64,000 nt of DNA, taken from the NCBI RefSeq assembly GCF_000025985.1, contig NC_003228.3, positions 4,092,001 to 4,156,000 on the forward strand, given 5' to 3'. The notes beneath the pieces are model-generated. The model did no database searches. It was not told the origin of the DNA and saw only the letters and a program-made list of their open reading frames with translations. The stretch comes from Bacteroides fragilis NCTC 9343. GTDB taxonomy: Bacteria > Bacteroidota > Bacteroidia > Bacteroidales > Bacteroidaceae. Positions 2,787 through 55,833 of the stretch are shown here, piece by piece (within the stretch, counting starts at the first letter, position 1; each line of letters opens with the position of its first letter). Position numbers and translations under genes: made by a program.

Positions 2787-2818
2787 AAGTACCGGAGGGA
2801 AGGAAATAGAAGAGAAAT

Positions 2819-2866
2819 GCCCCGTAAGAATATATGTAATCGAAATAACATATATTCTTACGGGGC
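2819..2866. repeat. perfect 19-bp inverted repeat (hairpin)
   Basis: Arms 2819-2837 and 2848-2866 (GCCCCGTAAGAATATATGT and its exact complement) enclose a 10-nt loop. The hairpin starts 33 bp after the VapE stop codon. The downstream flank is not a T-run, so it is not a canonical intrinsic terminator, though it could stop or protect the vapE transcript. It sits at the upstream border of the AT-rich insert. Confidence 0.75.
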
Positions 2867-3121
2867 AGGACATATATTGGCGTTTTATTGACAAAAAGAT
2901 ATTAGCTATTTTAATTAGACTCCACACCTACTACAAACGACATACATATCAACAATTTTATCCTTATAGGCTTGACATATGAACAACACAACAACTCCCA
3001 ATTCAAACCTTGTAATGGATTCTAATGATTCAGTTAAATATATTCAGATAGTATTATTCTATTAAAAACAACATATTTAAGAACAATGTAGAATAATCCA
3101 ATAATTGTATTTTTCAAAAAC

Positions 3122-3179
3122 AACTTTCATCTGGGTCGCAAATACCTAAATTTAGGTATTTGCGACCCAGATGAAAGTT
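3122..3179. repeat. 58-bp perfect palindrome with no spacer
   Basis: Positions 3122-3150 (29 nt) and 3151-3179 (29 nt) are exact reverse complements, centred on AAATTT. The core contains CTGGGTCGCAAATACC. The right half includes the TTTG (-33) of a consensus promoter for the peptidase gene at 3292. Possible explanations are an operator for a dimeric or tetrameric regulator, a cruciform, a bidirectional terminator of upstream transcription (A-rich before, T-rich after), or a recombination site. The sequence alone does not choose between them. Confidence 0.8.
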
Positions 3180-3189
3180 CGTATTTTTG
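3159..3189 (+). promoter_or_regulatory. full Bacteroides promoter for the C10 peptidase operon
   Basis: TTTG at 3159-3162, a 19-bp spacer, and TATTTTTG at 3182-3189 match the consensus TTTG-N19-21-TAnnTTTG. The predicted start near 3196 gives a leader of about 95 nt before ATG 3292. The -33 element lies inside the 58-bp palindrome. Confidence 0.65.
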
Positions 3190-3291
3190 TATTCAGAAAC
3201 TATTTAGGATTCATTAATATTTATACATTCATATTATTATTGGTTTCATTAAACCTTAGCAAACTATTTATTCATCATTAATAAAAAAACT

Positions 3292-4815
3292 ATGAAGTAT
3301 TATCTGCTGTTTTATTCACTTATTTTTTTATTTATTTTTTGTTCGTGTTACGATGAATCTCTTAATTTTGATCATGATATAATCCAAAAAGATCTTGATT
3401 CCAATTACACCTTTATTATGAACGAAGCAGATGCTCTAGATCTTGTTTCGTATTTTATAAATAGTATGGAAAACAGCCCAGCCACTCGAGTAGCTTCTTT
3501 AGATACCAGAGAAGTTGAAGGCATTGTTACCTTTCCTAAAACAAGGGCAAATCTCCTTCCGGAATGGTTACAAGAGTTCAATAAGAGATTTTATATTGTA
3601 AATATGAAAAATGACAAGGGATATGCTATAATTTCTAAAGACGAACGTGCATTCCCATTTTATGCTATTTTAGATCATGGACGGTTTAACTTTAATAGCA
3701 TTGATTCTGTTTCAACATCTATCTATCAAGGATTTATAAGAAGAAATAAGATAGATATTGAAAGATCAGATTCTCTATATTTAAACAAATCATTATTTCC
3801 CTTAACGCGTAGTAGCTTAGATGATAAAACCTTTTTTCAAATCAAAGAATTAAAGAAAGGACTATTCCGTGGGTTTGGAAGATCTTCTAATTATCTTCTA
3901 AAAACGAGATGGACTCAAAATGTTACGAGACCCAATATTTATTTGCAAAAAAGTGGAGCAACCTATTATGATGTATATGGTAATACCACGAGAAGCGCTA
4001 CAATAAATACAGGTGATGGTAGTATTCAAAGTACAAGATTATTTGGTTGTACTCCAGTTGCTTTTGGTCAAGTTTTGTATGGACTAAGAAGTCATAAAGG
4101 TGTCAAAGATTTATGCTATTCTAATGGACAACCAGTCTTATGGGACAGAATGGAAAAAGGTATGAATCCAGAGGTTGAACGTTTTCTAGGCTGGATCACA
4201 ATGAACTGTTCTCCAAAAGTTGTTGATATTACTTTTTTAGGAACTTCATTAACTAAACCCGGAGTAATGGTCCACAATGTAGATGCAAAAAATTTTATTA
4301 AAAAAATTCTAGGAGATTATTTAGATATTCAATATGATAATTGCGTTATATGGGCTGGTGATTTAAATGGCTTTACAGGAAATAATGAAGGAAAAAAAAT
4401 CGCAGAAAAGTTTTATACAACAAATAAAGAATGTTTTGCAATATTCACCGGATCCCAAAAGACAATGCCTTCCGACTACCACAGTTACGTTGTCGACAGA
4501 ATGTGTGAAATTCTAATGAAACATAGAGGGGTAATTGTTACGCCGAAGGAAATTGTTGAGAGCTTTACACCAACACAAACCAATATAATGAAAGAACAAG
4601 GATTGTTAGTAATAGAGACTAATCCTAATCGCATTATCTATCATGAACCTTATTCAGTGACAATTTGTCATGTAAACTATGGCTGGGGCAATAAACATAA
4701 TGGTTATTATTATTTTAATGAGAGAACCGATGGTGGATTAAAATATGAAGGTAATGAAGGGTTTAATAATAATTTCAACCACAATCTTGCTTATACTATT
4801 ATAACTCCGAAATAA
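3292..4815 (+). CDS. C10 family (streptopain-like) cysteine peptidase lipoprotein, 507 aa
   Basis: A secreted papain-fold cysteine protease of family C10, related to SpeB and the Bacteroides fragilis Bfp proteases. The N terminus is a lipoprotein signal with the lipid-accepting Cys at about 19 (FCSC), so the protein is probably anchored to the cell envelope. Residues about 40-200 form the propeptide. The catalytic Cys is about C253 (LFGCTPVAFGQ). The catalytic His is about H397 in HSYVVDR, which aligns with HAFVIDG of streptopain. The conserved segment HVNYGWGNKHNGYYYF at about 460-475 matches HVNWGWGG. It is AT-rich compared with its neighbours, which suggests transfer. A BACON-like lipoprotein gene follows 4 bp downstream. 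Activation presumably needs removal of the propeptide; substrates cannot be inferred. Confidence 0.88.
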   Translation: MKYYLLFYSLIFLFIFCSCYDESLNFDHDIIQKDLDSNYTFIMNEADALDLVSYFINSMENSPATRVASLDTREVEGIVTFPKTRANLLPEWLQEFNKRFYIVNMKNDKGYAIISKDERAFPFYAILDHGRFNFNSIDSVSTSIYQGFIRRNKIDIERSDSLYLNKSLFPLTRSSLDDKTFFQIKELKKGLFRGFGRSSNYLLKTRWTQNVTRPNIYLQKSGATYYDVYGNTTRSATINTGDGSIQSTRLFGCTPVAFGQVLYGLRSHKGVKDLCYSNGQPVLWDRMEKGMNPEVERFLGWITMNCSPKVVDITFLGTSLTKPGVMVHNVDAKNFIKKILGDYLDIQYDNCVIWAGDLNGFTGNNEGKKIAEKFYTTNKECFAIFTGSQKTMPSDYHSYVVDRMCEILMKHRGVIVTPKEIVESFTPTQTNIMKEQGLLVIETNPNRIIYHEPYSVTICHVNYGWGNKHNGYYYFNERTDGGLKYEGNEGFNNNFNHNLAYTIITPK

Positions 4816-4819
4816 AGTA

Positions 4820-5263
4820 ATGAAAGAATTAAAAAGACAGAACCAAATGGAAATATTAAAAAAAGGATATAAAATCTTTGTACTATTATTCAGTATAATT
4901 ATTATTGCCTATTCTTGTAGAGACGGTGGAGTAGCCGCTGTGGTTAATTTCAAGCCGAATCCTATCCGATTTTCAAAAGAAGGGGGAGAATATACCATCA
5001 AGGTCAAAGGGAGTCGCGGTCCGCAATGGGATTACACCAACTGTACCACCCATTCAGGTAAGGAGGAAACAATGAAAATGGATACCATTGATAATATTGT
5101 TCATATAAGCAATGATTGGATTGAGTTTATGTTTAATTCTGGAGCAAATTGTAAATACATTGATGTGAAAGTAAAGCCGAATAATTCTGATATGAGAAGA
5201 AGTTTGATATTCAATGTCTGGAGTGTCGCTTTACCTACACAACTGGCTGTTTATCAAGATTAA
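4820..5263 (+). CDS. small BACON-like lipoprotein, partner of the C10 peptidase
   Basis: The 147-aa product has an N-terminal hydrophobic segment ending IIAYSC and then a single beta-sandwich-like domain. The pattern is FSKEGGEYTIKVKG, a central W, DWIEF, KYIDVKVKPN, RRSLIFNVW and a final LAVYQD, which is the usual outline of a BACON or related Ig-like domain. Start is ATG 4820, or alternatively ATG 4847, which gives a more usual signal peptide length. It follows the peptidase by 4 bp, so the two are surely co-transcribed. C10 proteases in Bacteroides and Streptococcus are often encoded with a small inhibitor. An inhibitor or substrate-targeting role is therefore possible, but it is inferred from context only, as no propeptide-like sequence is obvious. 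Confidence 0.65.
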   Translation: MKELKRQNQMEILKKGYKIFVLLFSIIIIAYSCRDGGVAAVVNFKPNPIRFSKEGGEYTIKVKGSRGPQWDYTNCTTHSGKEETMKMDTIDNIVHISNDWIEFMFNSGANCKYIDVKVKPNNSDMRRSLIFNVWSVALPTQLAVYQD

Positions 5264-5351
5264 AATAAAAAAGCTTCATTACCACAAAAGAGAAAAGTAC
5301 GAACAAAATTTATTCCGGCTACTTTTATCTGTTTGATTGCTGAATACATAC

Positions 5352-5384
5352 AGATGATAAAGGTATTTGTATCATCTTATTTTT
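5352..5384 (+). terminator. probable terminator of the peptidase operon
   Basis: A short stem AGATGATA (5352-5359) with TATCATCT (5370-5377) is followed by TATTTTTG. It lies about 90 bp after the lipoprotein stop codon. Confidence 0.5.
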
Positions 5385-5411
5385 GAACTTGTGCATAAAT
5401 TGCACAAGTTC
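5385..5411. repeat. perfect 10-bp hairpin
   Basis: GAACTTGTGC (5385-5394) and GCACAAGTTC (5402-5411) flank a 7-nt loop. It directly follows the T-rich tail of the preceding terminator, in the gap between convergent genes. Confidence 0.6.
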
Positions 5412-5432
5412 AACTTCTTATCAAATCCTCCG

Positions 5433-5452
5433 AACCAATACCGGTATTGGTT
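5433..5452. repeat. 20-bp perfect palindrome
   Basis: AACCAATACCGGTATTGGTT is a perfect palindrome without a spacer. It lies 11 bp beyond the stop codon of the minus-strand DUF4248 gene. It may act as a terminator stem or a protein-binding site. Confidence 0.65.
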
Positions 5453-13559: not shown

Positions 13560-13567
13560 TACCTTTG
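13560..13567 (+). promoter_or_regulatory. -7 element upstream of the cobalamin riboswitch
   Basis: TACCTTTG fits TAnnTTTG and sits 8 bp before the first paired bases of the aptamer, which places the transcription start at the 5' edge of the riboswitch. Confidence 0.5.
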
Positions 13568-13574
13568 TAGCAGA

Positions 13575-13730
13575 TTTCAGTACTAAAAAGAGGTTTAGTC
13601 ATAAGGGAACGCTGTGCAAATCGGCGACAGTACCCGCTGCTGTAATTCTCTGAGAATCCGCACACTATGCCACTGCGCCCAGCGTGGGAAGGCGTTGCGA
13701 GGGAGAGATAAGTCAGAAGACCTGCTGAAA
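13575..13730 (+). ncRNA. cobalamin (AdoCbl) riboswitch in the nrdD leader
   Basis: The conserved blocks occur in order: AAGGGAA near 13613, the CGGCGACAGTACCCGCTGCTG arm (13622-13642), GCCACTGCGCCCAGCG, GGGAAGGCG and the B12 box AAGTCAGAAGACCTGCTG ending near 13727. TTTCAG (13575-13580) pairs with CTGAAA (13725-13730) to close P1. The gene start is 47 bp further on. B12-dependent regulation presumably lowers expression of the downstream B12-independent reductase when cobalamin is plentiful. No intrinsic terminator is evident in the short linker, so translation control is more likely. Confidence 0.88.
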
Positions 13731-13777
13731 AAGTAAACATATTTAAAAAAAATCTAAAGCTTTCGGGAGTTAAAGTT

Positions 13778-55529: not shown

Positions 55530-55659
55530 ATGGTATCATCGGCAAGTCTTCCGGCAGACGGTGTGTCCGGAGAGAATAGACGGTATCTTGGGGGGCGGAA
55601 GACGGTGAGTTTTCGTTAAAAGCAGTAATCATTCACCTCCGAAGCCCGGTTCTTCGACC

Positions 55660-55701
55660 CGATATCATCAGGAGATAAATGATTATCTCCTGATGATATC
55701 G
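55660..55701. repeat. perfect 18-bp hairpin
   Basis: Arms 55660-55677 and 55684-55701 (CGATATCATCAGGAGATA and its complement) enclose a 6-nt loop (AATGAT). There is no U-tract. It lies about 130 bp upstream of the cls-like gene's -7 element (55795-55802). Confidence 0.75.
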
Positions 55702-55833
55702 GAAGTTACTCCTATTCTTTTCCAAAGAAGTGCCAAATTGTTAATCTATACTAAATCTGCTCTTGACAAAAAGAAGGCAAGAACAGAGATGTTGTATCTT
55801 TGTTTTCTTGTAAACTAAATAAAGACTGAGGTT

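What the first reader, a model, noticed from the sequence alone, without database searches (positions are those of the whole stretch)
3122..3179. 58-bp perfect palindrome with no spacer overlapping a consensus promoter
The two 29-nt arms are exact complements with no loop, and the right arm contains the -33 TTTG of a full Bacteroides promoter (TTTG-N19-TATTTTTG) that would drive the C10 peptidase operon. A palindrome of this length is rarely neutral. It could be an operator for a multimeric regulator, a cruciform switch, a recombination site or a terminator protecting the insert from upstream transcription. Fold-back cloning or assembly artefacts should also be considered.
Basis: partly seen in the sequence, partly recalled or inferred. 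Interest (0 to 1): 0.7.

Follow-up and report, generated by a model that had tools for sequence, protein, structure and literature searches.

The report
Regulator site inside long palindrome
A perfect 58-letter mirror sequence in front of a protease gene is built around a short site, probably bound by a regulator, that the same bacterial genus places at the same fixed distance from many other promoters; the rest of the mirror looks like a by-product of DNA copying rather than a new kind of switch.

Summary
The 58-bp zero-spacer perfect palindrome (3122-3179) and the TTTG-N19-TATTTTTG promoter (3159-3189) are real. The palindrome is single-copy in its genome, and no near-full copy turned up in 157 other genus genomes.

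Its centre, TACCTAAATTTAGGTA (3143-3158), is a recurrent promoter site. In 158 genus genomes, TACCTN6AGGTATT with a -7 box 8-38 nt downstream gave 30 places; 24 lie exactly 23 nt from the -7 box, and the backwards control gave 0. Collapsed by hand to 19 gene groups, 14 are at 23 nt. Targets are mostly outer-membrane receptor- and porin-like proteins. I read the core as the operator of an unidentified regulator centred near -42, probably an activator, that brings the protease into this regulon.

The outer 21 nt of each arm are not shared: 43 other sites of this spacing pair 6.5 of 21 flank positions on average, near chance; the window pairs 21 of 21. The simplest origin is replication template switching seeded at the operator dyad. 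Recombination site and mobile repeat are not supported, terminator only weakly. Unresolved: the regulator, the sign of control, whether the outer arms do anything; long reads and sister strains could not be checked.

The parts
3122..3179 (.). 58-bp perfect palindrome, arms 3122-3150 and 3151-3179
   Evidence: DNA fold -34 kcal/mol, z -13.8 for 3100-3200
3143..3158 (.). operator core TACCTAAATTTAGGTA
   Evidence: recurrent core at fixed 23-nt distance from the -7 box:
3159..3162 (+). -33 element TTTG, directly after the core
3182..3189 (+). -7 element TATTTTTG
3122..3142 (.). left outer arm, mirror copy of the region between operator and -7 box; not shared with other sites; no TAnnTTTG within 48 nt on the minus strand
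   Evidence: (L119, minus strand)
3159..3179 (.). right outer arm, part of the promoter (-33 to just before -7); not conserved between sites beyond the first three bases
3115..3120 (.). CAAAAA, imperfect continuation of the symmetry, pairs with TTTTTG 3184-3189
   Evidence: that the duplication once reached the -7 box is inference
3292..4815 (+). C10-type cysteine peptidase gene with Spi propeptide, 507 aa, downstream gene
   Evidence: PF13734 31.2 bits (cut-off 25), PF01640 21.3 bits (under cut-off 26); invariant Cys253 and His397 in 13 aligned sequences
4820..5263 (+). 147-aa lipoprotein-like gene, presumably the same operon
   Evidence: no Pfam or NCBIfam family
2895..5451 (.). low-GC (31.5%) cargo slot that holds all of the above
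   Evidence: homology with G014 runs to 2894 and resumes at 5452 (L004)

Best explanation
The middle of the palindrome is the binding site of a regulator, most likely a dimer (TACC-N8-GGTA), placed so that its centre lies about 42 bp upstream of the expected start and its right edge touches the -33 element; a protein there most likely contacts RNA polymerase as a class II-type activator does. This puts the C10 peptidase operon in a regulon of mainly outer-membrane receptor- and porin-like genes. The perfect symmetry beyond the core is secondary: during replication the short operator dyad folded back, the polymerase copied the promoter half (to just before the -7 box) onto the other side, and the site became a 58-bp perfect palindrome. 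Shown: the shared core, the fixed spacing, the target genes, the lack of outer-arm symmetry at other sites. Inferred: dimeric protein, activation rather than repression, start-site position, template-switch origin.
For: 30 places of TACCTN6AGGTATT-N{6,36}-TAnnTTTG in 158 genus genomes, 24 at spacer 23, 2 at 24, backwards control 0; 14 of 19 hand-made gene groups at 23, P 1.3e-17 against a uniform spread over 31 spacers, 13 of 18 without the window. Own genome: 8 places of the relaxed form with spacer 22-24 allowed, all at 23, control 0. Own targets include a siderophore-type TonB receptor (TIGR01783, 297.4 bits, cut-off 223.5) and three more receptor or barrel proteins over Pfam cut-offs. Flank symmetry: window 21 of 21 pairs; 43 other spacer-23 sites mean 6.5, maximum 12, chance about 5.9; longest perfect arm elsewhere 8 nt. 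Template switching makes imperfect inverted repeats perfect in E. coli (PMC7202029, abstract and passages).
Against: The core word without the -7 box is not enriched across the genus: TACCTAN4TAGGTA 34 places against 42 in the backwards control in 60 genomes (hand sums), although 6 against 1 in the own genome. The regulator is not identified; none of five genes of CRP/Fnr-type hits nor the better Rrf2-like gene has the core in its fetched locus. The window has a complete -33, which an activator-dependent promoter need not have. No relative with the imperfect precursor was found. No protein binding, start site or expression was tested. Gene groups were made by hand.
Confidence: 0.62

Rival explanations
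1. Same operator, but the protein is a repressor: it covers the -33 element and a signal releases it; otherwise the palindrome as above.
For: The core abuts a full -33 in the window. A 26-bp palindrome elsewhere in the genome also overlaps the -33 of a consensus promoter, in front of a 146-aa ORF (L076:15296-15321).
Against: A repressor does not need one strict distance, yet 24 of 30 places are at 23; most other sites have TTG or TTTC rather than a full TTTG at that position.
Confidence: 0.2
2. The outer arms are functional: under negative supercoiling the whole palindrome extrudes as a cruciform that takes the operator and the -33 element out of the duplex, or they bind a second protein.
For: Very stable fold (-34 kcal/mol); the arms end two bases before the -7 box.
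Against: None of 43 other spacer-23 sites has the outer symmetry; no conservation could be tested because only one genome holds the locus.
Confidence: 0.09
3. Assembly or fold-back cloning artefact: only the right half exists in the cell.
For: Perfect fold-back symmetry; only one genome record shows it.
Against: The assembly is near complete in 2 contigs and operator, -33 and -7 spacing are regular. Neither excludes it.
Confidence: 0.06
4. Terminator, recombination site or mobile repeat.
For: Terminator-like scan hits at the palindrome on the minus strand.
Against: No + strand terminator call there (the scan uses loops of 3-8 nt and at most 20 pairs); single copy in the genome, no exact arm in genome contigs or viral contigs; no segment between the arms to invert.
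Confidence: 0.03

Closest known systems
Class II activator sites (CRP/FNR type, centre near -41.5; general knowledge)
   Same: Dyad site at a fixed distance from the promoter, edge at the -33/-35 element
   Different: Half-site TACC/GGTA is not a CRP or FNR half-site known to me; regulator unknown; perfect symmetry reaches 29 nt per side
Cur (BT4338) sites of Bacteroides (PMC6989115, PMC3878776, passages)
   Same: Palindromic site near a -7 box, genus-wide regulon
   Different: Consensus wwwTATGTTnTAnAACATAwww does not fit the core
Quasipalindrome template-switch products (PMC7202029, abstract and passages)
   Same: An imperfect inverted repeat becomes a perfect one
   Different: Here inferred from one sequence; the E. 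coli cases are observed mutations
B. fragilis C10 protease genes bfp1-bfp4 (PMC2873492, passages)
   Same: Same peptidase kind; variable accessory genes, two of the four on insertions
   Different: Apparently a further gene: that paper lists only bfp1 and bfp2 for NCTC 9343; two C10 loci over cut-off lie at C1:123236 and C1:1915188 here and lack the core in the 320 nt upstream

Membership tests
Bacteroides sigma-ABfr promoter | -7 box TAnnTTTG and TTTG about -33 | tested here: met
   3159-3189; consensus as quoted in PMC7366714 (passage)
Bacteroides sigma-ABfr promoter | transcription start a few bases downstream of the -7 box | not testable with these tools
   no expression data for this locus
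TACC-N8-GGTA promoter operator (defined here) | core TACCTN6AGGTATT | tested here: met
   3143-3160
TACC-N8-GGTA promoter operator (defined here) | exactly 23 nt between core and -7 box | tested here: met
   24 of 30 places at 23, window among them
Class II activator site | bound by an activator that contacts RNA polymerase | not testable with these tools
   regulator not identified
Cur (BT4338) regulon site | wwwTATGTTnTAnAACATAwww | tested here: not met
   consensus against 3122-3179
Rrf2-family operator | an Rrf2 regulator in the genome | tested here: inconclusive
   own genome has two matches, 27 and 21.2 bits, both under the cut-off of 30; no Rrf2 over cut-off in the 10 genus genomes searched
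Intrinsic terminator | hairpin followed by a T tract | tested here: inconclusive
   scan hits on the minus strand only
Invertible promoter or recombination site | inverted repeats flanking a segment | tested here: not met
   0 nt between the arms
Dispersed repeat (REP, MITE, IS end) | further copies in the genome | tested here: not met
   single place in the own genome
Template-switch product | imperfect precursor in sister strains | not testable with these tools
   only one genome per species held; no hit in viral contigs, plasmids or phages

The most novel reading that the evidence does not exclude
The perfect extension is itself selected: the operator sits in the middle of a 58-bp cruciform-capable palindrome whose extrusion removes operator and -33 from the duplex, so that supercoiling and the regulator jointly gate a horizontally exchanged protease, within a so far unnamed genus-wide receptor/porin regulon.
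Probability: 0.09. Interest if true: 0.65.

Novelty: new member of a known kind. Interest (0 to 1): 0.45.

Why it matters
It turns an odd palindrome into a testable regulatory link: an exchangeable protease wired, through a 16-bp core at a fixed position, to the promoters of receptor- and porin-like proteins and, in a related form, of cysteine synthase. The core with its 23-nt rule defines a candidate Bacteroides regulon whose regulator is unknown here. I saw no description of it in the listings of paper searches or in the passages read from seven Bacteroidetes regulation papers; that is a narrow look at open-access papers only. It also offers a clean case in which a regulatory dyad may have seeded a long perfect palindrome.

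Tried and rejected
Arms as dispersed repeat or element ends: exact scans of genome contigs and viral contigs empty (records of the own genome may be left out there); one place in the own genome; in 157 other genus genomes the best match is 33 nt at E 7.5e-4 and the listing is cut. Weak arm-like matches elsewhere were judged chance; three similar ones (L057, L060, L061, 82% over 33 nt, E about 0.05) sit in what looks like one orthologous coding region and were dropped.

C10 relatives elsewhere: only distant ones apart from the gene's own cluster (P0001). In one search the two other C10 genes of this genome and two Prevotella relatives (four genes, six locus files) had neither core nor palindrome in the 320 nt upstream; for the bfp1-type gene that stretch lies within an upstream gene, so its operon promoter was not seen. 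L023 and L027, weak matches, were likewise without the core; for L022 and L024 the script found no proper gene, so they count for nothing. Plasmids, phages: no match. No Rfam match at the palindrome at gathering scores.

Regulator: Cur rejected by consensus. An iron-responsive reading was considered because of the siderophore-type receptor and because BT2450, first gene of a locus with a C10 gene, is in a B. thetaiotaomicron iron stimulon list (PMC10434189, passages); but another paper reports that fchA1 and fchA2 mRNA do not respond to iron or heme limitation (PMC5552952, passage; its Table S2 not seen; that L206 is fchA1 is my inference from position and FhuA-like matches), so iron is not claimed as the signal. 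Search for autoregulation: the five loci with HTH_Crp_2 hits (four over cut-off) and the better of two Rrf2-like hits carry no TACC-N6-10-GGTA; the second Rrf2-like locus (L228) was not examined.

Limits of the counts: gene groups were made by hand from protein starts and one (L191) had no gene called; several 'porin' members are grouped by resemblance without a family hit (L190, L192). One search lists only part of its matches and was used in numbers for the own genome only. Loci behind one search were partly fetched with patterns that require TT after the core, so conservation of those two T is partly by construction.

Full report
Observation. The window holds a 58-bp perfect palindrome without spacer at 3122-3179, 112 bp before the start codon of a 507-aa gene. 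In 800 kb of the same genome the longest zero-spacer arms are 17 nt; by base composition 29-nt arms are expected about 6.5e-10 times per genome. Long perfect hairpins with loops of 2-8 nt do occur (5 with arms of 22-32 nt in 800 kb), downstream of gene 3' ends, so length alone is not the remarkable part; the zero spacer and the promoter position are. Of the three zero-spacer palindromes with arms of 13 nt or more in the sample, one overlaps the -33 of a consensus promoter (L076), one lies between divergent ORFs (L087:12660) and one inside an ORF (L097). The promoter TTTG-N19-TATTTTTG (3159-3189) is as described.

Surroundings. The window lies at 4092001-4156000 of a 5,205,140-bp contig in a genome of 5,241,700 bases in 2 contigs; from memory these sizes are those of Bacteroides fragilis NCTC 9343 and its plasmid. 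The upstream gene encodes a VapE-type protein (PF05272) and is followed by a separate long hairpin (2818-2867). Alignment with the closest relative, G014, runs to 2894 and resumes at 5452; between these the window has low-GC cargo (31.5%) with the C10 gene and a 147-aa gene, G014 has different cargo that looks like a toxin-antitoxin pair (named from sequence). The C10 gene has a Spi propeptide (PF13734 over cut-off) and a C10 domain under the cut-off, with invariant Cys253 and His397 among 13 aligned sequences. It was found at full length only in the own genome among 158 genus genomes.

The core. Weak matches to the axis of the palindrome in other genomes led to a second look: in several promoters TACC-N8-GGTA stood exactly 23 nt before TAnnTTTG, as in the window. 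This was then tested. TACCWN6WGGTA with a -7 box 8-38 nt downstream occurs in 115 of 158 genus genomes; in the own genome there are 10 places, 7 of them at spacer 23, against 1 in the backwards control. The stricter TACCTN6AGGTATT form gives 30 places in 23 of 158 genomes: 24 at 23, 2 at 24, 2 at 8, 1 at 20, 1 at 28; control 0. By hand-made gene groups, 14 of 19 are at 23 (P 1.3e-17 for a uniform spread over 31 spacers), and 13 of 18 without the window. In the own genome the relaxed form with spacers 22-24 gives 8 places, all at 23, control 0. The core without the -7 box is not enriched across the genus (34 against 42 control places in 60 genomes, hand sums), so the signal is the linkage to the promoter, not the word itself.

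Targets. In the own genome: a siderophore-type TonB receptor (TIGR01783, 297.4 bits, cut-off 223.5), a second TonB receptor whose subfamily is not resolved, an outer-membrane barrel protein with an LRR-like lipoprotein behind it (LRR under cut-off), a CarbopepD/Plug receptor, a 568-aa lipoprotein without family, a cysteine synthase (named from its sequence), and the C10 gene. In other species: Porin_O_P-like proteins, a PepSY_TM protein, a hemerythrin/PAS protein, short proteins without family. A related TACCA..TGGTA form precedes cysteine synthase at the same spacing in 12 loci of other genomes, and a spacer-18 form precedes a lipoprotein gene in 6 loci; in 3 of those the divergent neighbour looks like an O-acetylhomoserine sulfhydrylase (names from sequence).

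Function. With the -7 box ending near -4 (assumed from its name) the core is centred near -42, where class II activators sit (general knowledge). Strict spacing across unrelated genes and incomplete -33 boxes at most other sites favour an activator; the full -33 here leaves repression possible. The regulator was not found: the Cur consensus differs; the genome has four CRP/Fnr-type genes over cut-off and two Rrf2-like matches under it; the six loci examined have no core. A paper reports fchA1 mRNA as not iron- or heme-regulated, so an iron signal is not claimed.

The outer arms. Among 44 distinct spacer-23 sites held as loci, the window alone has a long perfect arm (29 nt; next 8). The other 43 pair 6.5 of 21 flank positions on average, maximum 12, chance being about 5.9. 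The outer arms are therefore not part of the shared site. The right arm is the promoter itself (-33 to just before -7); the left arm is its mirror copy and has no -7 box for the other strand. Quasipalindrome template switching, known to make imperfect inverted repeats perfect (PMC7202029, abstract and passages), explains this with the operator dyad as seed. The weak continuation CAAAAA/TTTTTG suggests that the copy may once have reached the -7 box (inference).

Verdict. Most likely a real operator of a receptor/porin-type regulon at a canonical position, enlarged to a perfect 58-bp palindrome by replication template switching. The palindrome is a new member of a known kind; the regulon rule is the part worth following.

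Noticed in passing
window 2818-2867: A 23-nt-arm hairpin (TGCCCCGTAAGAATATATG...) after the VapE-type gene; similar hairpins occur at C1:1602128, C1:1450511 and C1:3061971 of the own genome and in G014 and G017: a dispersed terminator-like inverted repeat.
   Followed up: partly
window 2895-5451: Cargo slot between the VapE-type gene and a small 84-aa ORF: low-GC C10 cassette here, different cargo in G014 with clean borders on both sides (L004).
   Followed up: partly
window 3292-4815: A C10-type peptidase beyond the two genes that the 2010 survey lists for NCTC 9343 (PMC2873492, passages); it falls under the Pfam cut-off.
   Followed up: partly
L149, L153, L154, L156, L160, L164: TACC-N8-GGTA at 18 nt (not 23) from the -7 box of a conserved lipoprotein gene, divergent from sulfhydrylase-like or MnmA-like genes; possibly a sulfur-metabolism site.
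   Followed up: no
L151, L152, L162, L174 and similar: Cysteine-synthase promoters carry a third half-site (GGTA-N6-TACC-N8-GGTA) upstream of the core.
   Followed up: no
window 55659-55702: Another strong inverted repeat, 20-nt perfect arms with a 4-nt loop.
   Followed up: no
window 13561-13743: Cobalamin riboswitch (RF00174, 105.3 bits) directly before a 797-aa gene that looks like an anaerobic ribonucleotide reductase (named from sequence).
   Followed up: no
L073:19036-19086 and L089:13401-13471: Two long hairpins of the own genome share the sequence AAGTTAACTTT in their arms.
   Followed up: no
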